A stretch of DNA of 64,000 nucleotides from Crambe crambe (Eukaryota > Porifera > Demospongiae > Poecilosclerida > Crambeidae). Below the pieces are notes generated by a model. The model had not been told where the DNA came from. It was given only the letters and a program-made list of their open reading frames with translations, and did not search any database. Numbering within the stretch: position 1 is the stretch's first letter; every line of letters begins with the position of its first letter. Location: positions 5,309,338-5,373,337 of the forward strand of contig OZ004581.1 in assembly GCA_963924555.1 (NCBI GenBank). Direction: 5' to 3'. This document shows, piece after piece, positions 26,195 to 57,699 of this stretch. The position numbers and the translations under genes are program-made.

Positions 26195-26204
26195 TTATAA
26201 TAAG

Positions 26205-33700: not shown

Positions 33701-34199
33701 GAACATACAGTGATAATGTGCAATACATACAGTGCATGCTACTAGTGATGTGATGGACTCTTCTTCCTTTCCTTATTCATCAGTCGAAGAGGCTACTACA
33801 CAATAATTATACTAATAATTACTTTCTGGCTCAGATAGATTTGCATGCACAAGTAAGTGATCACAAAAATTGATGCAGAGTTGCTAATAATATAATATTA
33901 TACCATCAAAATTGTCAATGAACTTCAATGCCAAGATGCAGTCATCAGAGTTACCAACACAATTTTGCTGGAATCAATCCAGCACAGTTACTAGAGAGAC
34001 GCAGGAGCTGCAATGCCGGTGTCACGTAAATTTAGGGACCCCATAAATTTGGGGACCCCCGACCCCAAAATTATCGTAAAATTAGGGTCCCCCCTGTAAA
34101 ATTAGGGACCCCATGCATGCTCTGCGCGCGGGATTGGGGCGCATGCGCCGTAAGTAAAGCAAAAAGCTTGCAAAATCCTGTACTACTGTCCAGCTGAAG

Positions 34200-34362
34200 A
34201 TGGAAGATGCTCAGGGAAGGTTTACCTTTGACCAAATATATAACTACATTAGCGATGGTATATATCCAGAAGGCTTTGAAAAGGGTGACAAACTAGCCCT
34301 AAGAAAAAGGTGTAAGTTTTTCATAGTGATGGAGGCTGATCTCTACTATATTGGTGGACAAA
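34200..34362 (+). CDS. Ginger integrase, exon 1
   Basis: Starts at ATG 34200 (MEDAQGRFTFDQIYNYISDG) and continues YPEGFEKGDKLALRKRCKFF and MEADLYYIGG to a donor GTGAGG at 34363. Splicing to 34937 restores an uninterrupted frame (A|GT = Ser) and leads into KAKSRAKPRLVVEDTEKRRR. The N-terminal segment is the short domain found ahead of the zinc-binding region in Ginger transposases. Without splicing the frame stops at 34385. Confidence 0.7.
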
Positions 34363-34453
34363 GTGAGGATAAATACCAATTGTAGATACGCAATAGTTGC
34401 ATGCAATCTTCTCTAGCTATCTATGAGCCCTTAGGCTTATATTGGATCATCCC

Positions 34454-34456
<3 letters not shown>

Positions 34457-34498
<42 letters not shown>
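34457..34498 (+). repeat. (AG)21 microsatellite in Ginger intron 1
   Basis: 21 AG units between CCCTGC and AACTCTTC. The second Ginger copy has 20 units at the matching place, which by itself explains the 2-bp length difference between copies. Confidence 0.9.
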
Positions 34499-34501
<3 letters not shown>

Positions 34502-34936
34502 TCTTCAATAAAGTCGGCCCAACTTGAATTGGTGCACAACTAACATTTCCATAGCCCTATGCTATAGATTAATGGTTAGTTCGTGCAATCATTTCATTAT
34601 TTTGTATCATTACACCTTTTATGCTGTGTGTGCTTTTGTTGTGACAGGTTTTTTCATGATTTGCCATTTATGCATTACGTAATGGGGTAGTGGTTATTGG
34701 TTTTGTGCATGTCTTTTCTTGCTTTTCATATTTTTTCTTGTTTAGTTTTTTTTTGTATAGGACTGGTGAGAATTTATGTTATAGCTATAGTCAGTGAGAT
34801 TCAGTTATTCTATACAAATTAAAATTTAGTAGCTATACTTTCAAACTCCTGCTCCGGGTCCTCTACATCCTATGAGGGTTTATACCTTGCCATATGTGTA
34901 GGGCTATAGGAGATTATTATGACTGTATTTGAGTAG

Positions 34937-35106
34937 GTAAGGCAAAGTCTCGAGCTAAGCCCAGGCTTGTGGTTGAAGATACTGAAAAGCGAAGACGAAT
35001 TATTGCAACTATTCATGATGATAGCCACTTGGGTATCCACCGAACCAACGATCTAATCTTTAAAAAATATTATTGGCCTGTTTTATATAAGGATATTTCA
35101 ACCTAT
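34937..35106 (+). CDS. Ginger integrase, H2C2 exon
   Basis: Acceptor TTTGAGTAG and donor GTAAGTATT. Encodes VVEDTEKRRRIIATIHDDSH, LGIHRTNDLIFKKYYWP and VLYKDISTY: the two His of an HHCC zinc finger and the YYWP motif common to Gypsy-type integrases. The matching Cys pair (CDQC) is at the start of the next exon. Confidence 0.8.
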
Positions 35107-35178
35107 GTAAGTATTTGCATAATAGCTATTGTTACTACTAGGTAATTAATTCATTTGTATTAAAAAAAATTTCCTCAG

Positions 35179-35424
35179 GTTGGAACATGTGATCAATGTC
35201 AACGTAATAATAAAAAGCTGAAAAAAGCTTCAGGTTCTCTTCATCCGATTCCAGTTCCTTCAAAATTATGGTGTCAAGTAGGAATGGATCTTATTGGCCC
35301 CCTTCCCAAGACATCAAGGGGAAACAAGTATATTGTAACATTAACAGACTACTTTTCAAAATGGGCTGAAGCAGCACCACTCTTTAACAAGACTGCTGAA
35401 GGAATTGCAAAGTTTATGTATAGT
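35179..35424 (+). CDS. Ginger integrase, catalytic core part 1
   Basis: Acceptor TTTCCTCAG, donor GTAAGTTTAG; 82 codons. Starts VGTCDQCQRNNKKLKKASGS (closing the zinc finger), then IPVPSKLWCQVGMDLIGPLP with the first catalytic Asp in GMDLIG, then NKYIVTLTDYFSKWAEAAPL. Typical RNase H-fold integrase core. Confidence 0.85.
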
Positions 35425-35546
35425 GTAAGTTTAGAGTAAATATACCAAATTGCTCCATACTTTGATATTTGCATTAATTGAATCAAGAGTTGCTATAGTA
35501 ATAGACAGACAACAAAATGATATTATCATAGATTACAAATCTATAG

Positions 35547-35678
35547 GTTATGTGTCGGTTTGGCTGCCCTGAAGTAGTTATTACTGATCAAGGAAGGGAG
35601 TTTGTTAATGAATTGACATCGCAGCTTTATCATTTAACCAACACTGAACACCGAATAACAAGTGCTTACCACCCCCAG
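35547..35678 (+). CDS. Ginger integrase, catalytic core part 2
   Basis: Acceptor AATCTATAG, donor GTATATG; 44 codons. Encodes MCRFGCPEVVITDQGREFVN with the second catalytic Asp, then LTNTEHRITSAYHPQ. The third catalytic residue (Glu of NGLTERFN) lies in the next exon exactly 35 residues further, i.e. a D-D-35-E triad. Confidence 0.85.
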
Positions 35679-35779
35679 GTATATGCTATACTCTTTTGCT
35701 ATACTTTAGTATACAAGTATGCATGCATGGTGTGCTTGGTGTCTCCTAATAAGGTATTATTTTTGCTCTATGGCTGCAG

Positions 35780-36376
35780 ACAAATGGGCTAACAGAGCGC
35801 TTTAATCAAACTCTCAGCCGATGCCTTGCCAAGCTGTGTAATGAGGAACACAATGACTGGGATGACAAGATTGATTCTGTACTAATGGGTTATAGAGCAT
35901 CTTTTCAGTCATCTACCAAGCACTCTCCTTATTTTATGCTCTTCCAAAAGGAAATGAGACTGCCAATTGATGTAGAAATTATGCCAGTTGCTGACATGTC
36001 TGAAGAAGATCTTGAAGCTACAACTCAAGCATTGCTAAAGAAAAGGAAAAAAATGTTTAAAAAGGCTGCAAAAAACATTAAAGATGCCCAGAAAAAACAA
36101 AAGGATACATATGATAGGAAGCATTTACCTGAATTGCTTGCAGTGGGAACCAAAGTAATGGTTGAAAATACAGCACAAAAGGAGAGAAAGGGTGGGAAGC
36201 TTGATGAGACATTTAAAGGAATTTATTACATTGAAGAAAGTTTGGGGAAGGGGTTATACAAGCTCAAAAACCAGCAAGGTGACATTCTCAAGAAGACATT
36301 TAATATCAGCAGGTTGAAAGTGTACAAGACACGAAGAAGCAAGGTCGATATGAATTTCAAAAGAAGAGGATCAAAG
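35780..36376 (+). CDS. Ginger integrase, C-terminal exon
   Basis: Acceptor TATGGCTGCAG; 199 codons to donor GTATATGC. Begins TNGLTERFNQTLSRCLAKLC (catalytic Glu), then YRASFQSSTKHSPYFMLFQK, a Lys-rich helix (ALLKKRKKMFKKAAKNIKDA), and a GPY/F-like C-terminal fold (LDETFKGIYYIEESLGKGLY; NISRLKVYKTRRSK). The GPY/F core is diverged (KGIYYI instead of LGPYTI). All four internal splice joins of the transposase keep the frame, which argues that the gene is intact. Confidence 0.85.
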
Positions 36377-36444
36377 GTATATGCATGCATGCTAGATATT
36401 GTCTCCCTACATTTATAATATTGATCCCATGCATTTATTATCAG

Positions 36445-38345
36445 AGTAGTGACAAAAATCAAAAGAGACCACATCAGAGGTGCAGGTAATGAAATAAGAT
36501 GTAGAAAACTGTAGAACTGTACGTATAATTATGCAGGATACAGCCACCCTACAAACTTGAAGCTAGTGATATATTTCAATATTCTTCTGGTGATGATGAT
36601 TCTCACAGTGTGCAGTCAATGCAACCTACTAAGCAAAGATGCCGACACCACTCATTCCTTGAGGATTCCAATCTAGATGATATAAAACTTGGATCACCGT
36701 CATCATCATATATTCAACCACCTGCTGCTATAAACCACAGCCCTGTTGAAGCAGAATCTCAAGGTAACATGCATGCATGTCATATATTTGCCACCAGGTG
36801 ATTGAATCTATATTACTTTGCTACATATAACCATTACACTGTTGTATGCTAAAACTTATACCTGTAGCTATCTTTGCAGCATCGTCAATTAAATTTCAGC
36901 AACCTGAGATATATGCTAGACAACTTCAAGAAATGAATCCAGGAAGTTTACTTGCAAAGATAGTATCTATGTCTCCCATTATTTATGATATTGCAAATGG
37001 AAGAGTGAGTGCAGACTAGCCACCTAATAATTATTTTTTATATAATGTTGTCATCTCCAGGTGTCAGAATGTATCAGCTATAATGATTTCACTAAGAGTG
37101 TTTGTGGAAAGCTGAGTATATGTTGCTGACATATGTATTACAATCATAAGTGATGAATGATGACCACATGCATGCAGGAAAGATGCAATATCACAGTAAT
37201 GCAATTTGCTCTATTAGCAGTTCTCAATTTGAGAAAGTGGCTGATTTTCTTTTATCCAAGGAAGACTTATTCAAACAGGTAGCTATTGTCTAAACTAGCT
37301 AATAATACGTTTACCCCATGCAAATATATAGATTCCTGTGTAATAGCAACTCTAATTTCTCCACTTTTACTTACCAAAGCAGCTATATAGTTATCCTACA
37401 TGCAGCCTATGCACTTGCTGCATGCAGGTGCTATAATGCATAGCATGTCATGCAGGGGGCATCTAGTAGCATAAATTACACATTGGATGTGATTCTTCCT
37501 GAAGTATTACTGAGAGTCATCATGGATGTTTTTCATGTCACTAGACATGAGGTAGGCAGCTATTATGCTGCATGTATAATTATAGTTATAATAATAATTA
37601 CATTGTAGGCTAAACTCATAATGTACTCTAATCCAAGAACTGATGTCAACCTTGAGTCTGACACTGAATCAGGTTTGTTAATATAGCTAACTATATACGT
37701 ATGGTAGTAGCTATTGTAGAATATGCCTTTTAGGTGGAGATTTCATTTCTTCAGAGAGCAGGGAAATTTATGACTGGGTGAAGGCAAAAATTGAAGGTTG
37801 TTCTATAGTTAGCTATAAATGTATATGATTTATACTGCTATGCAGCAAAACGAAAGAAAGGATATTACCAAATAGAGAGGATGGAGCAAATGTACAGCAC
37901 ACACAAAAGGCCGGTATGTACAATAGTATAGCTACATAGTACAATGTCATGCATGTATTTGTAAGACCTTGAATTAGTGAAATGTATATAGCTAACAGCA
38001 TGCATGCACTGCCATGGAATTTGTAGCTATAACACATCATGAATATACACATCCCCTAGCCCTACCCTTAAGCCTTATTAGCCTCCTATAGCCCCAAAGC
38101 CCTAATTATTATAAACTATAATGTGCTGGCTGTAGATTAAATCACAACATGCTCATTGTCAATTTGTTTGGCAAAGGGTCATGATCTAAGTGTGTGGCTG
38201 TAATCTTTGCTAATAAGAACAGATTAATATGAAATAACTAATTCCTTTTTAGTTCCTTGTAACCCTAAGGCACAGTGTGAATATGCTATATCCAGTCAAA
38301 ATTTAGAACTGTCTCCGCATTGCAGCAAAAACAATGGACATGAGG
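36445..38345 (+). CDS. Ginger middle region, several small candidate exons
   Basis: Between integrase and Ulp1 protease lie short open blocks with exon-like borders. Examples: 36445-36485 (SSDKNQKRPHQR), 36537-36764 (IQPPYKLEASDIFQYSSGDD ... SPSSSYIQPPAAINHSPVE), about 36887-37003 (QQPEIYARQLQEMNPGSLLA), about 37179-37279 (SISSSQFEKVADFLLSKEDL), about 37457-37550 (INYTLDVILPEVLLRVIMDV), 37610-37672, 37734-37796, 37845-37912 and about 38253-38348. I recognise no domain. Not every join is resolved, so the exact exon chain is uncertain. The region probably forms an alpha-helical linker (inference). Confidence 0.5.
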
Positions 38346-38370
38346 AAGGTATGATAATAATTAATTATAA

Positions 38371-38692
38371 GGCCACTATTGATAGAATGATTGTTTCCTG
38401 TCCACCGCCCGCGTATTGAAAATGTCACCGCATCAAAAATTATTACTGCCTATAGCGCCTGCCATTGCTCATGCGCACAGTAGAGCGCGCACATTTGGCT
38501 TCACATGCAGCTCTTTTTGGGAAAGCCCGTGGTGAATGACTAGTCTCGTGGGCCGCGAGACTAGTGAATGATGAAGACAGGACCCTTGAGACAAACAACG
38601 AAGCAGTAATAGAATAATTATAATAACCGCCCGCCCGCAGCACTTGTGGATATTTTCTTGGACAGGAAACTAGGATTCTATAAATAGTGGCC
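38371..38692. mobile_element. PIF/Harbinger-like MITE inside Ginger copy 1
   Basis: 322 bp with ends GGCCACTATTGATAGAA and the complement of GGCCACTATTTATAGAATCC, flanked by TAA (38368-38370, 38693-38695). A 3-bp TWA duplication and GG-starting ends fit PIF/Harbinger. The centre holds a perfect palindrome GACTAGTCTCG...CGAGACTAGT. It lies in an intron just before the Ulp1 exon, so it need not affect the protein. Same-length copies: 44789-45110 and 49972-50293. Confidence 0.85.
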
Positions 38693-38729
38693 TAATAATC
38701 TTTCAAACTTGTGCATAATTTTATTGTAG

Positions 38730-39343
38730 ATGATTATATTGATTTGACAAAGAATGATCTTGTTAATAAACCTGTTCAGTATTGGAGAAAAGATTTAATG
38801 TTATTTGATGAGGACAAAACAGCCTTACTACAGGGCAAGTGGCTTACTGATGGTATAATGTCAGCTGGTATTAAGCTTCTCAGAGAACAGTTTCCAAATG
38901 TGAAAGGATTGCAGTCCACTTCACTAGCAATGCATTCTGGATTTGAAATTCAGAGAGGGGAATTTGTTCAGTGCCTGAATGTGTATGACTCTCACTGGAT
39001 AACTATAGCTGGTGATAGTTCTCCTGGGACTGTCAACATATATGATAGCCTTCCTAATTGTGCATTATATAGTAAAACAAAAAGGCAAATAGCATCCATT
39101 TTGTTTACTGACCTCTCAACCATTACTGTGAACTTCATTGATGTTCAAGTTCAAGTAGGCAGTGATGACTGTGGACTCTTTGCACTAACTTTTGCAGCTT
39201 CACTTTGTGCAGGCGAGAATCCCGCAGAGTTAACTTATAGTCAAGATAAATTTCGCTCCCACCTTGCTAACTGCATTGAAAACCAATGGCTCAACCCCTT
39301 TCCGCAAACAAACAAACAAGAGGACAAGACCCAAGATTCGTAA
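38730..39343 (+). CDS. Ginger Ulp1-type cysteine protease
   Basis: An open frame of about 200 codons; an acceptor TTTATTGTAG at 38729 suggests this is a downstream exon rather than a free-standing start (an in-frame ATG is at 38711). Motifs of the Ulp1/SENP C48 fold: WLTDGIMSAGIKLLREQFP, VYDSHWITIAG with catalytic His, VNIYDSLP with Asp, VQVGSDDCGLFALTFA with the oxyanion Gln and nucleophile Cys (about H95, D112, Q148, C154 counted from ATG 38711). All catalytic residues are present. Known Ulp1 enzymes remove SUMO or related modifiers; Ulp1 domains are known in some Ginger1 and other DNA transposons, where their role is unclear. It ends with TAA at 39341, four bases before the PHD ORF's ATG. 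Confidence 0.85.
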
Positions 39344-39347
39344 TACA

Positions 39348-39509
39348 ATGAGATTCAATGTCTACTGCACATGCAGGGAGCCTGAATATGGCAGGATGGT
39401 GGAATGTATGACTTGCAAGGAGTGGTTTCATGAGGGGTGTGTCCAGGTACCACCAGGACTCTGGAACAACAAAAAAATGGATTGGTACTGTTATATGTGT
39501 GCTAAGTAG
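39348..39509 (+). CDS. Ginger PHD-finger ORF
   Basis: From ATG 39348 (MRFNVYCTCREPEYGRMVEC) through MTCKEWFHEGCVQVPPGLW and MDWYCYMCAK to a stop at 39507-39509. It shows the Cys4-His-Cys3 pattern of a PHD finger, with the W before C-Y-M-C expected of the fold. PHD fingers read histone H3 tails; in Ginger1 elements a terminal PHD finger is known and may guide integration (inference). The open frame extends upstream over the end of the protease frame in a different phase, so it may be joined by splicing or translated by reinitiation. I cannot tell which. Confidence 0.8.
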   Translation: MRFNVYCTCREPEYGRMVECMTCKEWFHEGCVQVPPGLWNNKKMDWYCYMCAK

Positions 39510-39554
39510 ACAGTTAGAATTTGGAAACAATCATATCAAAAATAATTATTGTGT

Positions 39555-40395
39555 CCGTATTAGGGGGTCCCCAAAATTATTGAGGGATCCCCATGTTTAT
39601 GATTAACTGGCATGGGGTTCCCTAAATTACTTAAGAATGGGATCGGGGGTCTATAATTAGGGGGTCCCCATATTTACATAACTTTGGGCATGGGGTCCCC
39701 ATAAATTTGGGCATGAGATCCCCAAAAAATGAGGATGGTGATACATAATTAGGGGGTCCCTAAAATTCTTCAGGGGTCCCATATTAAAATTTGGGCATGG
39801 GGTCCACAAAATTACTTAAAATTGGAAGAGGGGTCTATAAATAGGGAGTCCCCATATTTACATAACTTTGGGCATGGGGGTTCCCATAAATTTGGGCATG
39901 AGGTCCCCAAATTACTTTAAATGGGGATGGTGATACATAATTAGGGGGTCCCTAAAATTCTTGAGGGGCCCCATATTAAAATTTGGGCATGGGGGTCCAC
40001 AAAATTACTTAAAATTGGAATAGGGGTCTATAATTAGGGGGTCCCCATATTTACATAAATTTGGGCATGGGGTCCCTAAATTACTTAAAAATGGGGATGG
40101 TGATCCATAATTAGGGGGTCCCTAAAATTCTTGAGGGGTCCCATATTAAAATTTGGGCATGGGGGTCCACAAAATTACGGAATAGGGGTCTATAATTAGG
40201 GGGTCCCCATATTTACATAAATTTGGGCATGGGGTCCCCAAATTACTTAAAAATGGGGATGGTGATCCATAATTAGGGGGTCCCTAAAATTCTTGAGGGA
40301 TCCCCATATTTATGATAAATTTGGGCATGGGGGTCCCCAAAATTACAAAAAAATGGGGATGGGGGTCCCCATTTTGTGGGGGTCCCCATTTTTAC
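39555..40395 (+). repeat. Subterminal minisatellite of Ginger copy 1
   Basis: Repeated blocks of about 90-190 bp made from AATTAGGGGGTCCC, AAAATTTGGGCATGGGG, CATATTTACATAA, ATTCTTGAGGGGTCCC and AAAATGGGGATGGTGAT. At least four higher-order units run up to the terminal inverted repeat. The left end of the element has only about 100 bp of the same kind of sequence, so the two ends are strongly asymmetric. Confidence 0.85.
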
Positions 40396-40466
40396 TTGAC
40401 ACCGGTTCTCACTTTAAGAAATAAATATATGTACAGAACTTGTTGGGGTGAAAATATCCATATAAG

Positions 40467-40880
40467 GGGAAAAGCATTTCGTGAAATGAAAAAAGATGTA
40501 GGGATGACCACTGCTCAAAAAAATAAGGAAACAAGAAGGATGGAAATGGGATCAATCTTTGTTCTGTATATCCAGCCAACAATCCCTACATAATATACGT
40601 ACACTATAATCTGAAGCTACCTGACGTATATGTAGGGATTGTTGGCTGGATATACAGAACAAAGATTGATCCCATTTCCATTCTTGTTTCCTTACTTTTT
40701 TGAGCAGTGGTCATCCCTACATCTTTTTTTCATTTCACGAAATGCTTTTTCCCTTACTTGTTCCTGGTCTTTTTTTCCTCTCTTTTATGGTTTTAGCTAT
40801 GTATAGAGTTCATTCTTTGTATGTGTATGCAGGGACAGATGAAAGAAGAATAGTTCTCCAATAGCATACTAGTCAGGTGG
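40467..40880. mobile_element. Fold-back MITE copy 3 plus R1 fragment
   Basis: The hairpin at 40467-40753 (GGGGAAAAGCATTTCGTGAA ... complement) is followed by R1 interior sequence (TTACTTGTTCCTGGTC, TGTATGCAGGGACAGATGAA, TCTCCAATAGCATAC) up to about 40872. The R1 ends are missing. From 40880 to 41300 there is AT-rich DNA with a CGCGAAAATA-type inverted motif at about 41050-41115, and no gene. Confidence 0.75.
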
Positions 40881-41309
40881 CTTAGTTGAAAAATGGGGAC
40901 AAAGTGGATAAAAGCACCAAGTTTTTTTTGGTGATCCCTTTGATATTCAGCTATAATTCTGAGGTAGGAGCCATTCCTGTACATAAGTAGAACACAAGAT
41001 TTTCACTAATGAAACATCTTGCATTTTTGCATCCTAAAATGCGGTATCCGCGAAAAATTATATTTTCGCGTTATATATTAGATGTATTGCGAAAATTAAA
41101 CACGCGAAAATAATTATTTTAATTAAAGAGTACTTTTTACAGTTGCAGCTACAAAGCTCATTGCAGTTCCAGTTTGCTTTCTTGCATGAACACCTTGCAG
41201 CCACACTTCTCTAGTTCATTGTAGGCTTATGTCCAACCACATCCTTCTGGAGTAGGTGTTTATTCAAACTCTTCTTATTTCTCTTAACTAACATGATAAA
41301 ATTCAATAG

Positions 41310-41690
41310 AATATGTTCTCATAACAAACCACCAACGTTTCAACCAGAATACTCTAGTCTTCACCAGGGTGATACAAAAAATACACACAGAATCGTTTCT
41401 TATATAGCTACGCTCGTTATCTAGATAACGCACATGCATAAGCCTATGGATATCATGTCGATAATATCCATATGCATATGCATGTGCGTTATCTAGCATA
41501 CCAGGCTGGGATCTGGACAACCAGTGATTTGGTCCTACAACAAACACCTATAGAATTAGCTCTCATAAATATTAGCTTTATGAAACAAACCACCAACATT
41601 TCAACCATGATACTCCAGGGTGATAGCTACAAAAAATGCACACAGAAACGTTTCTTATAATATAGCAACGCTTGTTATCTAGGCAATTTT
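41310..41690 (+). repeat. Direct repeat pair, period about 255 bp
   Basis: AACAAACCACCAACGTTTCA, ACACAGAATCGTTTCTTAT and ACGCTCGTTATCTAG (about 41323-41425) recur as AACAAACCACCAACATTTCA, ACACAGAAACGTTTCTTAT and ACGCTTGTTATCTAG (about 41584-41682). Between them is an inverted motif CACATGCATA...TATGCATATGCATGTG. Confidence 0.7.
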
Positions 41691-41883
41691 TTTCAATAGT
41701 ATAATCACTGAAGAAGATCCTCGTTGATCGAAAATTTCTATCGATACTTAGCCACTACAGTATTGAAGCTCAATAACATTATATAACTTATTAACTGAAA
41801 ATTTCTTTCAAAAATATAACAGCATAAAAAGGTATCTCAACATGCTTGCAGTGCTGCAACAGAGCATCCTGTGTTGGTATCCA

Positions 41884-42005
41884 CACTGTAAAACGAAAGT
41901 GTGCTGTGGACATGCACCATTGGTGTCCATATTGGGACATCTTGTCCCAGTATGGACACTTCTCACACACCAAAGTGTCCATAGCATATTTTATTTTTTA
42001 CAGTG
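41884..42005. mobile_element. Small MITE with CACTGTAAAA ends
   Basis: Begins CACTGTAAAACGAAAGTG and ends TTTTTTACAGTG. The interior is palindromic (GTGTCCATATTGGGACA facing TGTCCCAGTATGGACAC). About 122 bp. No clear target duplication. Confidence 0.7.
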
Positions 42006-42258
42006 CATTGTCTTATTTTTCTCACAGAATAATTCTCTCTGTGTCTCATTAACATACTCCAGATTGCTTGTCTTATCATAGAGAATGACAGTAAAGCATT
42101 CAAGAAGTTGAAAGTGGTTGGTTTCCACAGTTATTGGAGTATGTGGATGACTTGCCATGTAGAGGAATGATTGGGTCACCTCCGGATAAGATTTCCAGGC
42201 ATCCCATGCTGACTTCTTCCCTTTCCCAAAAAATGCAGATGTTGTACTGTATAATATG

Positions 42259-42382
42259 TAATAGTTAGAACACGGTAGTCTGGTGATTATGGCCAATAAA
42301 CAACCGAATCCGAGGGCGCAGCCCGAGGATAAGGTTGTTTATTTGGCCATAATCACCAGGACTACCGTGTTCTAACTGTTAT
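42259..42382. repeat. Near-perfect hairpin with GC-rich loop
   Basis: TAGTTAGAACACGGTAGTC and GGTGATTATGGCCAATAAAC on the left are mirrored by GTTTATTTGGCCATAATCACC and GACTACCGTGTTCTAACTG on the right. The loop GAATCCGAGGGCGCAGCCCGAGGA is itself partly palindromic (GAGGGCGCAGCCCGAG). A fold-back MITE or structured repeat; non-coding. 42385-43075 holds no gene. Confidence 0.8.
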
Positions 42383-43085
42383 ATATCCCCAGGGCGCACG
42401 ATTTCATTGGTCGGTCTGTAGCTAGAGCGTAGCTACCCCTTAGTTACGAAACAAAACGAAAACTCCTGCCATGGCTTGTCCATAGATAGTATATTACCGC
42501 CCCGGGATTGGAAACGGTAGCATGGGCTAATTGAAAATTCCGCGGGCACTCCGTGTTATGGTTTGCGACCAAGAAACTTACCTAGTTACGTGGGTAGCAA
42601 CGGGCTGCAGCGGTCCGCTAGGAGGCGTGCGGCTGCTCTTTCACAGGGAAACTGTAAGCGGCGGTTAGTATTTATAATTTGCATCCACAATTTCAATTAT
42701 TCCTACTAGTATAATGGCTAAATTCCACACTTTAGCGATATAGAAAACTAGAAGAAAATTTGTCGGGGGAATGGTAGTCTTCATAACTTAGGTTTGTGCT
42801 TATTATCTAGTTTTGTGAGTAGAGTCATCCTTCTTTTATAGAATGAGTGGCATTAGATGCATGTTACTGCATTAATGGTGAAAATATAAACCAATTACTT
42901 AGAGCACTCATGGGAGGAAGGAAGCATCGGCTATGTACAAGAAAGTAATGGTCATGTAACCTCCACTGCTGCACTCCATTCCAGATATCCTGGTCACTCC
43001 ACAGTTTATGCCAGTATTAAATGATCAATAGTGTCAATATCATTTATAGATTGCAACATGACCCTAAAAATTGTTCCGGTGTCAA

Positions 43086-43926
43086 GTAAAAATGGGGACC
43101 CCCACAAAATGGGGACCCCCATCCCCATTTTTTTGTAATTTTGGGGACCCCCATGCCCAAATTTATCATAAATATGGGGATCCCTCAAGAATTTTAGGGA
43201 CCCCCTAATTATGGATCACCATCCCCATTTTTAAGTAATTTGGGGACCCCATGCCCAAATTTATGTAAATATGGGGACCCCCTAATTATAGACCCCTATT
43301 CCGTAATTTTGTGGACCCCCATGCCCAAATTTTAATATGGGACCCCTCAAGAATTTTAGGGACCCCCTAATTATGGATCACCATCCCCATTTTTAAGTAA
43401 TTTAGGGACCCCATGCCCAAATTTATGTAAATATGGGGACCCCCTAATTATAGACCCCTATTCCAATTTTAAGTAATTTTGTGGACCCCCATGCCCAAAT
43501 TTTAATATGGGGCCCCTCAAGAATTTTAGGGACCCCCTAATTATGTATCACCATCCCCATTTAAAGTAATTTGGGGACCTCATGCCCAAATTTATGGGAA
43601 CCCCCATGCCCAAAGTTATGTAAATATGGGGACTCCCTATTTATAGACCCCTCTTCCAATTTTAAGTAATTTTGTGGACCCCATGCCCAAATTTTAATAT
43701 GGGACCCCTGAAGAATTTTAGGGACCCCCTAATTATGTATCACCATCCTCATTTTTTGGGGATCTCATGCCCAAATTTATGGGGACCCCATGCCCAAAGT
43801 TATGTAAATATGGGGACCCCCTAATTATAGACCCCCGATCCCATTCTTAAGTAATTTAGGGAACCCCATGCCAGTTAATCATAAACATGGGGATCCCTCA
43901 ATAATTTTGGGGACCCCCTAATACGG
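43086..43926 (-). repeat. Subterminal minisatellite of Ginger copy 2
   Basis: Reverse complement of the array at 39555-40395, with GGGACCCCCTAATTAT, CCATGCCCAAATTT and ATCACCATCCCC blocks. No difference in unit number from copy 1 is apparent. Confidence 0.85.
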
Positions 43927-43971
43927 ACACAATAATTATTTTTGATATGATTGTTTCCAAATTCTAACTGT

Positions 43972-44133
43972 CTACTTAGCACACATATAACAGTACCAAT
44001 CCATTTTTTTGTTGTTCCAGAGTCCTGGTGGTACCTGGACACACCCCTCATGAAACCACTCCTTGCAAGTCATACATTCCACCATCCTGCCATATTCAGG
44101 CTCCCTGCATGTGCAGTAGACATTGAATCTCAT
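43972..44133 (-). CDS. Ginger copy 2 PHD-finger ORF
   Basis: Translation identical to 39348-39509: YCTCREPEYGRMVECMTC, WFHEGC, WYCYMCAK. Starts four bases after the protease stop in sense orientation. Confidence 0.8.
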   Translation of the reverse strand: MRFNVYCTCREPEYGRMVECMTCKEWFHEGCVQVPPGLWNNKKMDWYCYMCAK

Positions 44134-44137
44134 TGTA

Positions 44138-44751
44138 TTACGAATCTTGGGTCTTGTCCTCTTGTTTGTTTGTTTGCGGAAAGGGGTTGAGCCATTGGTT
44201 TTCAATGCAGTTAGCAAGGTGGGAGCGAAATTTATCTTGACTATAAGTTAACTCTGCGGGATTCTCGCCTGCACAAAGTGAAGCTGCAAAAGTTAGTGCA
44301 AAGAGTCCACAGTCATCACTGCCTACTTGAACTTGAACATCAATGAAGTTCACAGTAATGGTTGAGAGGTCAGTAAACAAAATGGATGCTATTTGCCTTT
44401 TTGTTTTACTATATAATGCACAATTAGGAAGGCTATCATATATGTTGACAGTCCCAGGAGAACTATCACCAGCTATAGTTATCCAGTGAGAGTCATACAC
44501 ATTCAGGCACTGAACAAATTCCCCTCTCTGAATTTCAAATCCAGAATGCATTGCTAGTGAAGTGGACTGCAATCCTTTCACATTTGGAAACTGTTCTCTG
44601 AGAAGCTTAATACCAGCTGACATTATACCATCAGTAAGCCACTTGCCCTGTAGTAAGGCTGTTTTGTCCTCATCAAATAACATTAAATCTTTTCTCCAAT
44701 ACTGAACAGGTTTATTAACAAGATCATTCTTTGTCAAATCAATATAATCAT
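44138..44751 (-). CDS. Ginger copy 2 Ulp1-type protease
   Basis: The translation is identical to the copy 1 protease at 38730-39343, including the His/Asp/Gln/Cys catalytic set. The MITE at 44789-45110 lies just upstream in sense orientation, as in copy 1. Confidence 0.85.
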
Positions 44752-44788
44752 CTACAATAAAATTATGCACAAGTTTGAAAGATTATTA

Positions 44789-45110
44789 GGCCACTATTTA
44801 TAGAATCCTAGTTTCCTGTCCAAGAAAATATCCACAAGTGCTGCGGGCGGGCGGTTATTATAATTATTCTATTACTGCTTCGTTGTTTGTCTCAAGGGTC
44901 CTGTCTTCATCATTCACTAGTCTCGCGGCCCACGAGACTAGTCATTCACCACGGGCTTTCCCAAAAAGAGCTGCATGTGAAGCCAAATGTGCGCGCTCTA
45001 CTGTGCGCATGAGCAATGGCAGGCGCTATAGGCAGTAATAATTTTTGATGCGGTGACATTTTCAATACGCGGGCGGTGGACAGGAAACAATCATTCTATC
45101 AATAGTGGCC
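44789..45110. mobile_element. PIF/Harbinger-like MITE inside Ginger copy 2
   Basis: 322 bp with GGCC...GGCC ends flanked by TTA on both sides (TAA in element orientation). Same site within the Ginger as in copy 1, so it was present before the two Ginger copies separated. Confidence 0.85.
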
Positions 45111-47104
45111 TTATAATTAATTATTATCATACCTTCCTCATGTCCATTGTTTTTGCTGCAATGCGGAGACAGTTCTAAATTTTGACTGGATATAGCATAT
45201 TCACACTGTGCCTTAGGGTTACAAGGAACTAAAAAGGAATTAGTTATTTCATATTAATCTGTTCTTATTAGCAAAGATTACAGCCACACACTTAGATCAT
45301 GACCCTTTGCCAAACAAATTGACAATGAGCATGTTGTGATTTAATCTACAGCCAGCACATTATAGTTTATAATAATTAGGGCTTTGGGGCTATAGGAGGC
45401 TAATAAGGCTTAAGGGTAGGGCTAGGGGATGTGTATATTCATGATGTGTTATAGCTACAAATTCCATGGCAGTGCATGCATGCTGTTAGCTATATACATT
45501 TCACTAATTCAAGGTCTTACAAATACATGCATGACATTGTACTATGTAGCTATACTATTGTACATACCGGCCTTTTGTGTGTGCTGTACATTTGCTCCAT
45601 CCTCTCTATTTGGTAATATCCTTTCTTTCGTTTTGCTGCATAGCAGTATAAATCATATACATTTATAGCTAACTATAGAACAACCTTCAATTTTTGCCTT
45701 CACCCAGTCATAAATTTCCCTGCTCTCTGAAGAAATGAAATCTCCACCTAAAAGGCATATTCTACAATAGCTACTACCATACGTATATAGTTAGCTATAT
45801 TAACAAACCTGATTCAGTGTCAGACTCAAGGTTGACATCAGTTCTTGGATTAGAGTACATTATGAGTTTAGCCTACAATGTAATTATTATTATAACTATA
45901 ATTATACATGCAGCATAATAGCTGCCTACCTCATGTCTAGTGACATGAAAAACATCCATGATGACTCTCAGTAATACTTCAGGAAGAATCACATCCAATG
46001 TGTAATTTATGCTACTAGATGCCCCCTGCATGACATGCTATGCATTATAGCACCTGCATGCAGCAAGTGCATAGGCTGCATGTAGGATAACTATATAGCT
46101 GCTTTGGTAAGTAAAAGTGGAGAAATTAGAGTTGCTATTACACAGGAATCTATATATTTGCATGGGGTAAACGTATTATTAGCTAGTTTAGACAATAGCT
46201 ACCTGTTTGAATAAGTCTTCCTTGGATAAAAGAAAATCAGCCACTTTCTCAAATTGAGAACTGCTAATAGAGCAAATTGCATTACTGTGATATTGCATCT
46301 TTCCTGCATGCATGTGGTCATCATTCATCACTTATGATTGTAATACATATGTCAGCAACATATACTCAGCTTTCCACAAACACTCTTAGTGAAATCATTA
46401 TAGCTGATACATTCTGACACCTGGAGATGACAACATTATATAAAAAATAATTATTAGGTGGCTAGTCTGCACTCACTCTTCCATTTGCAATATCATAAAT
46501 AATGGGAGACATAGATACTATCTTTGCAAGTAAACTTCCTGGATTCATTTCTTGAAGTTGTCTAGCATATATCTCAGGTTGCTGAAATTTAATTGACGAT
46601 GCTGCAAAGATAGCTACAGGTATAAGTTTTAGCATACAACAGTGTAATGGTTATATGTAGCAAAGTAATATAGATTCAATCACCTGGTGGCAAATATATG
46701 ACATGCATGCATGTTACCTTGAGATTCTGCTTCAACAGGGCTGTGGTTTATAGCAGCAGGTGGTTGAATATATGATGATGACGGTGATCCAAGTTTTATA
46801 TCATCTAGATTGGAATCCTCAAGGAATGAGTGGTGTCGGCATCTTTGCTTAGTAGGTTGCATTGACTGCACACTGTGAGAATCATCATCACCAGAAGAAT
46901 ATTGAAATATATCACTAGCTTCAAGTTTGTAGGGTGGCTGTATCCTGCATAATTATACGTACAGTTCTACAGTTTTCTACATCTTATTTCATTACCTGCA
47001 CCTCTGATGTGGTCTCTTTTGATTTTTGTCACTACTCTGATAATAAATGCATGGGATCAATATTATAAATGTAGGGAGACAATATCTAGCATGCATGCAT
47101 ATAC

Positions 47105-48979
47105 CTTTGATCCTCTTCTTTTGAAATTCATATCGACCTTGCTTCTTCGTGTCTTGTACACTTTCAACCTGCTGATATTAAATGTCTTCTTGAGAATGTC
47201 ACCTTGCTGGTTTTTGAGCTTGTATAACCCCTTCCCCAAACTTTCTTCAATGTAATAAATTCCTTTAAATGTCTCATCAAGCTTCCCACCCTTTCTCTCC
47301 TTTTGTGCTGTATTTTCAACCATTACTTTGGTTCCCACTGCAAGCAATTCAGGTAAATGCTTCCTATCATATGTATCCTTTTGTTTTTTCTGGGCATCTT
47401 TAATGTTTTTTGCAGCCTTTTTAAACATTTTTTTCCTTTTCTTTAGCAATGCTTGAGTTGTAGCTTCAAGATCTTCTTCAGACATGTCAGCAACTGGCAT
47501 AATTTCTACATCAATTGGCAGTCTCATTTCCTTTTGGAAGAGCATAAAATAAGGAGAGTGCTTGGTAGATGACTGAAAAGATGCTCTATAACCCATTAGT
47601 ACAGAATCAATCTTGTCATCCCAGTCATTGTGTTCCTCATTACACAGCTTGGCAAGGCATCGGCTGAGAGTTTGATTAAAGCGCTCTGTTAGCCCATTTG
47701 TCTGCAGCCATAGAGCAAAAATAATACCTTATTAGGAGACACCAAGCACACCATGCATGCATACTTGTATACTAAAGTATAGCAAAAGAGTATAGCATAT
47801 ACCTGGGGGTGGTAAGCACTTGTTATTCGGTGTTCAGTGTTGGTTAAATGATAAAGCTGCGATGTCAATTCATTAACAAACTCCCTTCCTTGATCAGTAA
47901 TAACTACTTCAGGGCAGCCAAACCGACACATAACCTATAGATTTGTAATCTATGATAATATCATTTTGTTGTCTGTCTATTACTATAGCAACTCTTGATT
48001 CAATTAATGCAAATATCAAAGTATGGAGCAATTTGGTATATTTACTCTAAACTTACACTATACATAAACTTTGCAATTCCTTCAGCAGTCTTGTTAAAGA
48101 GTGGTGCTGCTTCAGCCCATTTTGAAAAGTAGTCTGTTAATGTTACAATATACTTGTTTCCCCTTGATGTCTTGGGAAGGGGGCCAATAAGATCCATTCC
48201 TACTTGACACCATAATTTTGAAGGAACTGGAATCGGATGAAGAGAACCTGAAGCTTTTTTCAGCTTTTTATTATTACGTTGACATTGATCACATGTTCCA
48301 ACCTGAGGAAATTTTTTTTAATACAAATGAATTAATTACCTAGTAGTAACAATAGCTATTATGCAAATACTTACATAGGTTGAAATATCCTTATATAAAA
48401 CAGGCCAATAATATTTTTTAAAGATTAGATCGTTGGTTCGGTGGATACCCAAGTGGCTATCATCATGAATAGTTGCAATAATTCGTCTTCGCTTTTCAGT
48501 ATCTTCAACCACAAGCCTGGGCTTAGCTCGAGACTTTGCCTTACCTACTCAAATACAGTCATAATAATCTCCTATAGCCCTACACATATGGCAAGGTATA
48601 AACCCTCATAGGATGTAGAGGACCCGGAGCAGGAGTTTGAAAGTATAGCTACTAAATTTTAATTTGTATAGAATAACTGAATCTCACTGACTATAGCTAT
48701 AACATAAATTCTCACCAGTCCTATACAAAAAAAAACTAAACAAGAAAAAATATGAAAAGCAAGAAAAGACATGCACAAAACCAATAACCACTACCCCATT
48801 ACGTAATGCATAAATGGCAAATCATGAAAAAACCTGTCACAACAAAAGCACACACAGCATAAAAGGTGTAATGATACAAAATAATGAAATGATTGCACGA
48901 ACTAACCATTAATCTATAGCATAGGGCTATGGAAATGTTAGTTGTGCACCAATTCAAGTTGGGCCGACTTTATTGAAGA

Positions 48980-49025
<46 letters not shown>

Positions 49026-49279
49026 GGGATGATCCAATATAAGCCTAAGGGCTCATAGATAGCTAGAGAAGATTGCATGCAACTATTGCGTATCTACAAT
49101 TGGTATTTATCCTCACTTTGTCCACCAATATAGTAGAGATCAGCCTCCATCACTATGAAAAACTTACACCTTTTTCTTAGGGCTAGTTTGTCACCCTTTT
49201 CAAAGCCTTCTGGATATATACCATCGCTAATGTAGTTATATATTTGGTCAAAGGTAAACCTTCCCTGAGCATCTTCCAT
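47105..49279 (-). CDS. Ginger copy 2 integrase (five exons)
   Basis: Same exon chain as copy 1: 49279-49117, 48544-48375, 48302-48057, 47934-47803 and 47701-47105. Splice signals and reading frames are unchanged. H2C2 zinc finger, D-D-35-E core and a diverged GPY/F-like end are all present. In Ginger elements this enzyme is the transposase that cuts the element out and joins it to a new 4-bp target. Confidence 0.82.
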
Positions 49280-49463
49280 CTTCAGCTGGACAGTAGTACA
49301 GGATTTTGCAAGCTTTTTGCTTTACTTACGGCGCATGCGCCCCAATCCCGCGCGCAGAGCATGCATGGGGTCCCTAATTTTACAGGGGGGACCCTAATTT
49401 TACGATAATTTTGGGGTCGGGGGTCCCCAAATTTATGGGGTCCCTAAATTTACGTGACACCGG

Positions 49464-49971: not shown

Positions 49972-50293
49972 GGCCACTATTAGTAGAATGATTGTTTCCT
50001 GTCCACCGCCCGCGTATTGAAAATGTCACCGCATCAAAAATTATTACTGCCTATAGCGCCTGCCATTGCTCATGCGCACAGTAGAGCGCGCACATTTGGC
50101 TTCACATGCAGCTCTTTTTGGGAAAGCCCGTGGTGAATGACTAGTCTCGTGGGCCGCGAGACTAGTGAATGATGAAGACAGGACCCTTGAGACAAACAAC
50201 GAAGCAGTAATAGAATAATTATAATAACCGCCCGCCCGCAGCACTTGTGGATATTTTCTTGGACAGGAAACTAGGATTCTATAAATAGTGGCC
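49972..50293. mobile_element. PIF/Harbinger-like MITE, third copy
   Basis: 322 bp, same length and near-identical to the copies inside the Gingers; flanked by TTA at 49969-49971 and 50294-50296. Confidence 0.88.
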
Positions 50294-50347: not shown

Positions 50348-50848
50348 TTAGACAACCATATCTCTCGAACCACTCAAGCTACAGCCATGATTTCTGGACA
50401 AATCCACTCCAAATTCTACCAACTACGATCTTTTCTACTCGTTGATCCTCGAAAGAGTCGATGAAAAAGGAGACACTACGGAGCACAGCACTCGACTAAT
50501 TCAATTAGGAAGCCATCTTTTCTATAATACGCATGCGCATGTATTTGAATATCCAATTATTCGAAATCATAATATTACTCAGCTGTCTCTAGCTAGCTAG
50601 CTAGCTAGCTCTAGCTGATGATAGACTACTGTATCGATTCGGGGATTTAGATTCACCACGGTAGACTCTATTTCAGCATCTTCGACCTCCAAGTATGGCT
50701 CAACAACACGACACCTTGACTCGATAAATGATTGGGCTGGTATGCTATTGGAGAACTTCTTTCATCTGTCCCTGCATACACATAGAAGAATGAACTCTAA
50801 TCATAACTAAAACCATAAAAGAGAGGAAAAAAGACCAGGAACAAGTAA

Positions 50849-51145
50849 GGGAAAAAGCATTTCGTGAAATGAAAAAAAGATGTAGGGATGACCACTGCTC
50901 AAAAAAGTAAGGAAACAAGAAGGATGGAAATGGGATCAATCTTTGTTCTGTATATCCAGCCAACAATCCCTACATATACGTCAGGTAACTTCAGATTATA
51001 GTGTAGTAATGTGTGTATATGTAGGGATTGTTGGCTGGATATACAGAACAAAGATTGATCCCATTTCCATCCTTCTTGTTTCCTTACTTTTTTGAGCAGT
51101 GGTCATCCCTACATCTTTTTTTCATTTCACGAAATGCTTTTTCCC
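50849..51145. mobile_element. Fold-back MITE (GGGAAAAA ends), copy 4
   Basis: Hairpin arms as in copies 1-3. The loop differs slightly (ATATACGTCAGGTAACTTCA). 51146-51715 has no gene I can see. Confidence 0.85.
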
Positions 51146-51715
51146 TTATACACATTTTATATTGGTAGCTATTACTTTAAAATGGCTGAAATTACTGTGA
51201 AAATGAGACAATTTGTAGCTACTGAAATCAAAGTTCACAGGTTGGAGGCACTGCTAACAAAAGAAGACCACTTGCTAGCTTCACGCATGTACTGTGGTCG
51301 TACAGTACATGTGTGCTTATTATTATCTGGTCATGTGACTACTCGAATCTGATTGGCCTATCAAAATTCCTGCAGAGAACACAAAACTGTCTCCAGACCT
51401 TTCTTTCCCTCCCGCCCCACCCCCCAAAGTTTGAAAGGTCTGGTCGCCCAGACTAGTCCAGAGCGTGATCAACAATGCATTGGTATAAATCCGCCAACGT
51501 AACACTTACTCTCCTTCTGGAATCATCACAACTCTCCAATATCGAGCTACAGCAGTTCTAGCTGGGTACTGCAAGATAATTCTAACATAGTTTGCATGCA
51601 GCTGCTCTTCAATATCACGTGCTAGATCGCGTGACTGCTTGTGGCGTCATAATTGCCTGCAAAAATAATCATGCAGGCGGGCAATGAATTTCTTTTTCCA
51701 GGCCTAACAGAAGTA

Positions 51716-54640: not shown

Positions 54641-57600
54641 AAGCAACATCCATAACTGTTCCAGCAGCAGACCAGTTAACACCTCTGCAGATAGCTGAGC
54701 CTGCACCTTGTGCAGATGGACCAAATATGGAGATATCCTCCGTGGAAGTTTTTCCTGTGGTTACCAGAGCACAGAGTAAGAAGAAACTGAAGGAAATCGA
54801 GGCTCACGAGTTGGCAACAGCTCAGTCCCAGGTGGTACTCACACCACCTCAGCAGGAGCCTGTAGCAGAGCAAGGAAGCGATTCGGAAGTCTCGAATGCT
54901 TGTGAAGATGCTGGGACAGATGGACCTAATTCATCTGCCGAGCCGGGTGATTGTGAAGCGGAAACCAGACAGGAGCCGCAGAGAAACACTGGGATCACCA
55001 AGCAACAACTGCTGCAAGAACAGCAGCAGGATGATGAGACAGTCAAATTCATCAGAGAATCAGCAGACGAAGACTCACCATTCATGGTGATAGGAGATAT
55101 CTTGTACTGGAAGAGGCAGATCCGCATGAAGATCAGGCACTCATTGTTGTGCCAAAGAAGCTCAAGAACCAAGTCCTGCAAGCTGGTCATGACTTCGCTG
55201 GCCATTTTGGCAGTAAGAAATTGAAGACACTCATTCAAGCTCACTTTTGGTGGCCAGGCGACGTTGTGCAGTATTGCAAAGCATGTAAAATCTGCCAAAG
55301 ATTCAACAACAAGAAGACTAGGAAGGAGCCCCTATGCCCCCTGCCTGTTATTGACACACCATGGTCGAGAATAGCCATCGATATTGTTGGCAAGTTCGAG
55401 AGGACGAAGAAGGGGAATGCATATATTTTGACCATAATGGACTTTGCAACAAGGTATATGGAAGCCATTCCTTTGCCTAGGATTGACGCAGCAATGACCT
55501 GCAGTGCCCTACTTGAAGTATTCGCTAGGTTTGGCATTCCTAAGTCAGATAATGGCAGCAACTTTACAGCATAGCTGTCAGAAGAGTTCATGAAGATGTT
55601 CAAGATTCATCACATTAAAACTTCACCGTTCCATCCTCAAACCAATGGGATGCTGGAGAGGAGTCACCACACCATGAAGAAGACTCTAGATAAACTGGGA
55701 AACTCCACAAAGAATTGGGATGAATACTTGGTGCCAACGTTGATAGCTCTCAGGACAGCACCTCATGCTGCCCTAGGCATGTCTCCGTTTCAACTATTAT
55801 TTGGTCGAGAGGCAAGAACTCCTGTCTCTGCACTCAGAGAAGAAATCGAGCACGGCACCAAAGTCCCAAAGAATGTCTTGGACTATCTGAAAGACCTGTA
55901 CGACAAGATGGATAAAGCTCAAGCATTGGTCCATGAAAGAGACGCAAAAGCCAAACAGGATTCAAAGAAGATCTATGACAGAGGCACCCAGCATGAGCCA
56001 ATAGAACCAGGAGACCAAGTCATGGTATTGGTGCCTAAAGGAATTGACAACCTCACCTGCCAGTGGGAGGGGCCTTGTAAAGTCTTGAAGAAACTCAGTG
56101 ACACTATTTACCTGGTGGACACTCCTCACAGAAGTGGCAAGAAAAAGTCGAAGTATCACAGAAACTTGATGAAGAAATACTTTCTACAAGTGATGTCTGC
56201 AACAGTGATGTTGGCAGCAGATGAGCAAGGAGAAGCAGAAGTTACCCTGGAGAAAGAAGATCCCGACTTGGAGAAAGAAGTCAACATGGCATCTCATCTT
56301 GGAAAAGATCAGGAGAGATTTACTGCAAGTTCTACAGCAGTTCAGAGAAGTTTTCCAGAACACCTGGAGAGGCCAGAGTAAAGCCATTTTCAATCAACAC
56401 AGGAGATTCAAAACCGGTTTCTCAGTATCCAAGAAGATTACCGGAAAAAATGGAAGCAAAAGATTCAGGAAGAAATAAAGACACTTGAAGCAACAGGAAT
56501 CATCACACCATCTACCAGTCCTTGGACATCACCAATTGTTCCAGTTCCCAACCCTAATGGTGACGTCAGGATGTGTGTCGATTACAGGGGAATAAATAAA
56601 GTGACCCAAGAAGACATCTACCCTTTACCCAGAGTGGATCACCTGCTGGAAGAAGTCAGCCAAGCCAAGTATATAACTACTTTAGACTTGCCTAAAGGGT
56701 ACTACCAATTTCTGGTGAGCCCGGAAGATAGAAAGAAGACAGCCTTCATAACTCCGACAGGGAAGTGGGAGTTTAATAGAATGAAGGTGCCCCGGCAACG
56801 TTTCGAAGAGAAATGGATAGTCTTTTCCAAGACCAAGAGAATCTATCTGCATATATCGATGATGTTGCTATCTATAGCAATACCTGGGAGCAACACATCA
56901 AAGACATCGCCAGACCCTTAACCTTGCTGAAACAGAAAGGCCTCACTGCAAAGATATCGAAATGCAAATTTGCTAGACAGGAAGTTGAGTTCCTGGGGCA
57001 TGTGATAGGAGGAGGAAAGCTTAAAACCCAGCAAGCTAAAGTTGCAGCAAATGCAACTATGCCTACTCCCAAGATTAAGAAAGAGCTTCAGAGCTTCCTT
57101 GGGTCTACGGGATACTATCGAAAGTTCATTCCAAGATACTCAGAGAAGACAGCATGTCTTTCAGATCTGACAAGGGAAACAGAACCGGATAAGCTAGCCT
57201 GGACTCAGAGGTACCAGACTGCTTTTGACAGCCTCAAGAAAGCATTGTGTGAAGCACCAGTTCTCACAGCACCAGACCATGGAAAGCCCTTTATTCTCAG
57301 CACTGATGCCAGTGGTGTGGGAGTGGGTGGAGTTTTGGAACAAGCTACAGATGATGGAGAAGTCAAGCCAGTGGCTTTTTTTTCAAAGAAGCTCCTGGAT
57401 CGAGAGAAGAAGTACGGCATCACCGAACTGGAAGCATTAGCCCTGTGCAAGTCAGTTAAACATTTTGCGGCCTATCTACTAGGAAACAAGACAACAGTAT
57501 GGACTGACCACAAGGCCCTACAATTTATGGAGAAAATGAAAGGAGCAAGTCCCAGGTGGCTGCTTGAACTTCAACAGTATGATCTGAAGGTGAAGTACAA

Positions 57601-57699
57601 GAAGGGATCTGAAAACTGTGTCGCAGATGCCCTGAGCAGGAACCTTCAGACAGCACTTTCTCCACTGGACCAGTCCAGTCTTCTGAAAGGGGGGGGAGG

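What the first reader, a model, noticed from the sequence alone, without database searches (positions are those of the whole stretch)
34016..49463. Head-to-head-type pair of near-identical 6.4-kb Ginger transposons, 2.7 kb apart and inverted
Both copies have full terminal inverted repeats and their own CCGG flanks in different outer sequence, so they are two insertions rather than one palindromic duplication. All compared ORFs are identical. Two near-perfect inverted 6.4-kb arms around a 2.7-kb spacer would form a very large hairpin and could drive inversion, deletion or small-RNA production. They may be active or very recently active.
Basis: partly seen in the sequence, partly recalled or inferred. 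Interest (0 to 1): 0.8.

Follow-up and report, generated by a model that had tools for sequence, protein, structure and literature searches.

The report
Two recent Ginger1 transposons, tail-to-tail
Two almost identical 6.4-kb copies of a known kind of animal jumping gene (Ginger1) sit 2.7 kb apart and point at each other, most likely two very recent insertions; the arrangement is striking but the element itself looks like an ordinary, well-preserved member of its family.

Summary
Window 34016-40405 and the reverse complement of 43076-49463 are identical except for one AG unit in a microsatellite: 0 substitutions, one 2-bp gap. Homology stops at CCGG on all four edges; beyond it only 3 bp match on the 5' side and 0 on the 3' side, so these are two insertions, not a palindromic duplication. 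The element fits Ginger1: CCGG flanks, TGTCA...TGACA ends, 52-nt imperfect TIRs, integrase zinc finger and DDE core, a modest Ulp1 match and a PHD finger. A 937-aa frame without stops can be modelled identically in both copies. Corrections: the copies are tail-to-tail, not head-to-head; and because CCGG is a palindrome at all four edges, the edges cannot show whether the spacer has flipped, nor alone prove a TSD. A 322-bp MITE in the last intron of both copies probably predates their separation. Hairpin, small-RNA and inversion effects are plausible by analogy but untested; activity is inferred from identity only. Gene conversion and assembly homogenisation are not excluded. New member of a known kind.

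The parts
34016..34019 (.). CCGG at the 5' edge of copy A
   Evidence: sequence
34020..40401 (+). Ginger1 copy A, 6382 bp
40402..40405 (.). CCGG at the 3' edge of copy A
   Evidence: sequence
34016..34067 (+). 5' terminal inverted repeat of copy A (52 nt including CCGG, 79% complementary to 40354-40405)
   Evidence: I2
40354..40405 (-). 3' terminal inverted repeat of copy A
   Evidence: I2
34457..34499 (+). (AG)n run, 43 bp; the only difference from copy B (41 bp at 48982-49022)
34200..39343 (+). hand-modelled transposase gene of copy A: 15 exons, 14 GT-AG introns, 937 aa; all 15 exons found identical in copy B
   Evidence: exons 2-5 lie under a match to Ty3 integrase; exons 6-14 rest on open frame only
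34937..35106 (+). exon with most of the H2C2 zinc-binding domain (it continues into the next exon)
   Evidence: PF17921 E 2.1e-17 on the spliced protein, residues 70-123
35179..35827 (+). stretch of exons with the DDE integrase core (D in GMDLIGP, D in VVITDQG, E in GLTERFNQ; residues assigned by eye from the Ty3 alignment)
   Evidence: rve PF00665 E 1.3e-9, residues 147-236, and rve_3 E 9.4e-4 under its cut-off; PDB matches to Ty3 and PFV integrases
38730..39343 (+). last exon, Ulp1/C48-type protease domain (modest support)
   Evidence: PF02902 E 9e-5, 22.8 bits against cut-off 20.7, on the ORF 38699-39340
39348..39509 (+). PHD finger ORF (53 aa), +1 frame relative to the Ulp1 exon; separate ORF or shared frameshift
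   Evidence: PF00628 E 1.5e-7; PDB PHD matches
39559..40392 (+). 3' subterminal array of roughly 160-190-bp repeats (sub-periods also reported) rich in GGGGTCCCC
38371..38692 (+). 322-bp MITE in the last intron (38349-38729), flanked by TAA (38368-38370, 38693-38695)
43076..43079 (.). CCGG at the 3' edge of copy B
   Evidence: sequence
43080..49459 (-). Ginger1 copy B, 6380 bp; transposase gene 49279-44138 on the - strand
   Evidence: gene coordinates follow from the alignment
49460..49463 (.). CCGG at the 5' edge of copy B
   Evidence: sequence
44789..45110 (-). the same MITE inside copy B, identical to that in copy A
40406..43075 (.). 2670-bp spacer with a foldback repeat (40463-40756) and smaller palindromes (41421-41496, 42254-42386)

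Best explanation
Two very recent, separate insertions of one autonomous-looking Ginger1 DNA transposon at two CCGG sites 2.7 kb apart, in opposite orientation with 3' ends facing. Inferred steps: the element's Gypsy-integrase-like DDE transposase binds the TIRs and subterminal repeats, excises the element and inserts it at CCGG, duplicating the 4 bp. One copy was most simply made by a local hop of the other (moving after replication, with the donor kept or restored), or both came from a third identical copy. Shown: identity, edges, domains, a frame without stops, and a MITE in the same intron of both. Not shown: transposition itself, the duplication of CCGG, which copy came first, present activity.
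For: 0 substitutions between the edges; rule of three on 6380 bases gives an upper 95% bound of about 5e-4 differences per site. So none of the 62 CpG sites of copy A differs. Four different flanks ending exactly at CCGG. Transposase exons identical in both copies and free of internal stops. H2C2 and rve, Ulp1 (modest) and PHD. Integrase match to Ty3 over query residues 72-420. CCGG target, TGTNR ends, Ulp1 and PHD are published Ginger1 features (PMC2836005: parts 1 and 2 of 5 read, passages).
Against: No empty site, second individual, read data or genome was available. Identity could be inflated by polishing or kept by gene conversion. The PHD finger is out of frame with the Ulp1 exon in both copies, so full autonomy is not certain. 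Ulp1 support is modest: it was not listed at E 0.01 or better for the whole 937-aa protein, a YopJ-acetyltransferase family matches the same region under its cut-off, and no PDB protease was found. Exons 6-14 rest on my choice of splice sites.
Confidence: 0.82

Rival explanations
1. Older insertions kept identical by gene conversion between the inverted arms.
For: Long, close, inverted arms are good conversion substrates (general knowledge); identity alone cannot separate this from youth, and conversion could also have spread the intron MITE. Arrays and exons are equally identical.
Against: Identity runs to the last base at both ends; conversion tracts often leave diverged ends or patches (general knowledge). 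The one AG-unit difference is the kind of change expected first in young copies.
Confidence: 0.1
2. Assembly artefact: one copy duplicated, or two diverged copies homogenised by the consensus or polishing step.
For: Two arms of 6.4 kb at about 100% are hard to assemble and polish (general knowledge); no reads or coverage could be examined.
Against: Four distinct flanks and edges exactly at the transposon ends: a missed-adapter hairpin or a collapsed repeat would be expected to mirror flank sequence or break elsewhere. The arms also differ by one AG unit.
Confidence: 0.07
3. One event: a palindromic or segmental duplication, or a composite 15.4-kb unit moved as a whole with the outer 5' ends.
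For: The outer 5' ends are identical and each has CCGG, so a composite move is thinkable.
Against: Inner edges also end exactly at the 3' TIR and CCGG with unrelated sequence beyond (0 bp shared), so a duplication of flanking DNA is excluded. Use of two 5' ends has no evidence, and the 3' end carries most of the GGGTCCC motifs (16 of 17).
Confidence: 0.02
4. Not exclusive of the best explanation: the present order is secondary, the spacer having been flipped by recombination between the arms or by alternative transposition with ends of both copies.
For: Inversions by recombination between opposite TE copies and by alternative transposition are described in other organisms (passages of PMC8225341). 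CCGG is a palindrome at all four edges, so a flip leaves no mark there.
Against: No direct evidence; the window cannot decide it.
Confidence: 0.1

Closest known systems
Ginger1-9_HM and other Ulp1-type Ginger1 elements of Hydra (Bao, Kapitonov and Jurka 2010, PMC2836005)
   Same: CCGG target, TGTNR start, YPYY-like N-terminus (by eye), H2C2, DDE, Ulp1, and PHD (listed in Table 1 for Ginger1-9_HM only); length within 2.6-7 kb
   Different: More introns in my model (14, against 0-4 in their Table 1); PHD in another frame than Ulp1; TIRs imperfect and merged with a long 3' subterminal array. No sequence comparison with those elements could be run.
Mu killer of maize (PMC3440606, start of the abstract seen in the search listing)
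   Same: Inverted transposase sequence for which a hairpin RNA by read-through is proposed
   Different: [quoted passage not shown] here both copies are complete, have a 2.7-kb spacer, and no RNA evidence exists
Gypsy LTR-retrotransposon integrases, including two stretches in this window (17187-16375 and 55140-55826)
   Same: H2C2 and DDE core; 31 and 32% identity to the Ginger transposase
   Different: Part of retrotransposon pol; not in a TIR element with Ulp1 and PHD

Membership tests
Ginger1 | 4-bp CCGG (or CCGT) target site duplication | tested here: inconclusive
   CCGG stands at all four edges, which is what is expected; that it is a duplication rather than an element end needs an empty site
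Ginger1 | TGTNR 5' terminus | tested here: met
   TGTCA at the 5' ends of both copies
Ginger1 | TIRs of about 40-270 bp | tested here: met
   52 nt including CCGG (48 without) at 79% complementarity; an overlapping 69-nt arm pair in another register at 75%; imperfect
Ginger1 | H2C2 zinc finger and DDE integrase core | tested here: met
   PF17921 E 2.1e-17, PF00665 E 1.3e-9; Ty3 and PFV integrase matches
Ginger1 | YPYY motif upstream of the zinc finger | tested here: inconclusive
   Exon 1 reads IYPEGF...KFFIVMEADLYY, judged by eye against the Y/F-P-Y/F-Y/F rule of PMC2836005; no alignment to Ginger1 sequences was possible
Ginger1 | GPY/F motif | tested here: inconclusive
   SH3_Tf2-1 PF24626 E 1.6e-4, 22.1 bits, under its cut-off of 30; the region aligns with the end of the Ty3 integrase match
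Ginger1 | C-terminal Ulp1 or OTU protease, sometimes PHD | tested here: met
   PF02902 above its cut-off on the ORF (22.8 against 20.7 bits), but not listed at E 0.01 or better for the whole protein, with a YopJ family match under its cut-off in the same region, and no PDB protease; PHD PF00628
Ginger1 | Groups with Ginger1 in an integrase tree | not tested
   I had no Ginger1 sequences to build one with
Ginger2/Tdd | RTATAY target; no GPY/F or YPYY (PMC2836005) | tested here: not met
   CCGG edges at all four ends; the motifs themselves were judged by eye or by a weak match

The most novel reading that the evidence does not exclude
The tail-to-tail pair acts as a natural silencing trigger for its own family: read-through from either converging transposase gene would cross the spacer and the whole opposite copy, making a near-perfect 6.4-kb hairpin or double-stranded RNA, an animal counterpart of Mu killer born from two complete active elements, with a freely flipping spacer.
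Probability: 0.07. Interest if true: 0.6.

Novelty: new member of a known kind. Interest (0 to 1): 0.3.

Why it matters
Complete, near-identical Ginger1 copies are good candidates for a currently mobile integrase-type DNA transposon in an animal, which could be used to test how Gypsy-like integrases work in a cut-and-paste element. A near-perfect inverted pair is also a defined site for testing small-RNA triggering and spacer inversion. As a biological kind, neither the element nor inverted transposon pairs is new.

Tried and rejected
Palindromic duplication: rejected, as flanks diverge at all four edges. Other Ginger copies in the window: a blastn and tblastn search of the rest of the window found only the MITE and two Gypsy integrase stretches. 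An isolated CCGGTGTCA at 30717 was read; no Ginger sequence was found after it. The scan had 10 matches at up to 1 mismatch, 5.1 expected, 1 of 100 shuffles reaching 10; four of the ten are the Ginger edges and two lie inside the Gingers. Relatives: viral contigs with the 436-aa integrase part (six peptide patterns) found nothing; viral contigs with a 5'-end pattern found 0; genome contigs with a 199-aa piece had 61 pattern stretches, 0 of 61 confirmed; genome contigs with a MITE 20-mer found 3 bacterial stretches, taken as chance and not read. These collections hold viruses, bacteria and archaea, so absence says little about animals. No whole genome is held. One pattern was mistyped and matched nothing, not even its own source. 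tRNA and Rfam scans of the window were empty. Ulp1 against PDB gave no protease. The first splice models were off by one or out of frame and were replaced by that. An intron between Ulp1 and PHD: the one GT...AG stretch I saw by eye would remove the first two cysteines of the PHD finger, so it was not adopted. Searches on local hopping and on inversions were used only through PMC8225341.

Full report
What is there. The window compared with itself shows one 6.4-kb inverted repeat, 34013-40405 against 49466-43076, with 0 mismatches and one 2-bp gap. The gap is one AG unit in a dinucleotide run, and the alignment shows no other difference between the edges; a string check of the first 430 and last 5880 bases agrees. 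Copy A is 6382 bp and copy B 6380 bp, and the spacer is 2670 bp. All four edges are CCGG. Beyond CCGG the two copies share 3 bp on the 5' side and none on the 3' side, so each has its own surroundings and they are two insertions. CCGG occurs 44 times in the other 51,222 bases, about one per 1,160 bases, so CCGG at both insertion sites is not expected by chance.

Orientation. The transposase gene of copy A runs left to right (34200-39343) and that of copy B right to left (49279-44138, from the alignment).

What the element is. Ends read TGTCA...TGACA inside CCGG, with a 52-nt inverted repeat (CCGG included) at 79%, and an overlapping 69-nt arm pair in another register at 75%. The 3' end carries an array of roughly 160-190-bp units with 9 exact GGGGTCCCC motifs; none was found in the window outside the two copies. 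A hand-made gene model of 15 exons with 14 GT-AG introns gives 937 codons without an internal stop, and all 15 exons occur identically in copy B. Exons 2-5 carry most of the integrase part: H2C2 (PF17921, E 2.1e-17), rve (PF00665, E 1.3e-9) and a weak SH3/GPY-F-like match under its cut-off, and a match to Ty3 integrase over query residues 72-420 that runs through three of the intron positions. The last exon carries an Ulp1-type protease domain. The support for it is modest: 22.8 bits against a cut-off of 20.7, not listed at E 0.01 or better for the whole protein, a YopJ-acetyltransferase family matching the same region under its cut-off, and no protease in PDB. A PHD finger follows in another frame. 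Exons 6-14 have no homology support.

Membership. Bao et al. 2010 (PMC2836005; parts 1 and 2 of 5 read, passages) describe Ginger1 by CCGG or CCGT TSDs, TGTNR ends, TIRs of 40-270 bp, YPYY, H2C2, DDE, GPY/F and a C-terminal OTU or Ulp1 domain, with a PHD listed for one family. The element here meets the ends, TIR, H2C2, DDE and (modestly) Ulp1 features; CCGG is present at all four edges but not shown to be a duplication; YPYY and GPY/F were judged by eye or by a weak match; no tree was made, as I had no Ginger1 sequences. No tested feature was failed. Ginger2 does not fit, since its target is RTATAY. The integrase is 31 and 32% identical to two Gypsy integrase stretches in the same window, in line with the published closeness of Ginger1 and Gypsy integrases.

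How recent. No substitution was seen; the rule of three on 6380 bases bounds the difference at roughly 5e-4 per site. So the 62 CpG sites of copy A are also unchanged, although the element as a whole is CpG-poor (o/e 0.27 against 0.42 in the rest; exons 0.25, 3' array 0.06), which suggests that the family has long lived in a methylating genome (inference). Among 22 other match rows of at least 200 bp outside the Gingers (some overlapping; self-palindromes dropped) none is identical; two shorter foldbacks have arms of 116 and 134 nt at 100%. A 322-bp MITE with TAA on both sides lies in the last intron of both copies, identical in each; unless conversion spread it, it entered before the copies separated. 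These facts fit a very recent duplication by transposition. They do not exclude gene conversion or consensus polishing, because no reads, other individuals or genome were available.

What it may do. Inversion between opposite transposon copies and rearrangement by alternative transposition are described elsewhere (passages of PMC8225341), and for Mu killer, an inverted duplication of transposase sequence that silences MuDR in maize, a read-through hairpin RNA is proposed (PMC3440606, start of the abstract in the listing). The same could happen here, but nothing in the window shows it. Because CCGG is a palindrome and is the same at all four edges, a flip of the spacer would leave no trace in the edges: the pairing of inner and outer flanks is undetermined.

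Literature. Searches for Ginger elements listed, among others, the founding paper, a crustacean domesticated gene and related superfamilies; I saw passages of PMC12863088 and PMC10045372. I did not search for this particular pair by organism, as the organism is not known; the composition and short introns remind me of demosponges, which is recall and untested. I therefore make no claim that this family is absent from print.

Verdict. A real, well-preserved pair of Ginger1 transposons, tail-to-tail, most likely two very recent insertions, of a known kind; interest 0.3.

Noticed in passing
49972-50293: A third copy of the MITE found in the Ginger intron, about 500 bp outside copy B, flanked by TTA; it differs at two adjacent bases within the MITE. 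Its right flank is a (TTA)n run, so that TTA is weak evidence of a TSD. TWA flanks and GGCC ends recall PIF/Harbinger-type MITEs (recalled, not tested).
   Followed up: partly
38371-38692: The MITE has CpG o/e 0.93 against 0.25 in the Ginger exons and 0.06 in the 3' array, as if it were much younger than its host element in a CpG-depleting genome.
   Followed up: partly
39341-39509: The PHD finger ORF starts 4 bases after the stop codon of the Ulp1 frame, in the +1 frame, in both copies; it could be a separate small protein or a frameshift older than the duplication.
   Followed up: partly
10377-10675, 25897-26197, 40463-40756, 50846-51148: A foldback repeat family of about 300 bp with near-perfect arms (97-100%); three of the four sit in larger related repeats, and one lies about 60 bp from the 3' edge of Ginger copy A.
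   Followed up: no
16279-19235 (-), 21426-22175 (-), 55140-57763 (+): Gypsy-type retrotransposon remains: H2C2 and rve (16279-17433), zinc knuckle with a SCAN-like match under its cut-off (17349-19235), reverse transcriptase (21426-22175), reverse transcriptase and RNase H (56780-57763), and an integrase stretch at 55140-55826. Neighbouring ORFs were not scanned.
   Followed up: no
58687-59109: ORF with a weak PHD/NSD-like match at its C-terminus (PF22908 E 0.0026, under its cut-off).
   Followed up: no
window: TAGCTA is the most over-represented 6-mer among those seen 40 times or more outside the Gingers (79 copies, 4.9 times the base-composition expectation); it may help to place the organism.
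   Followed up: no
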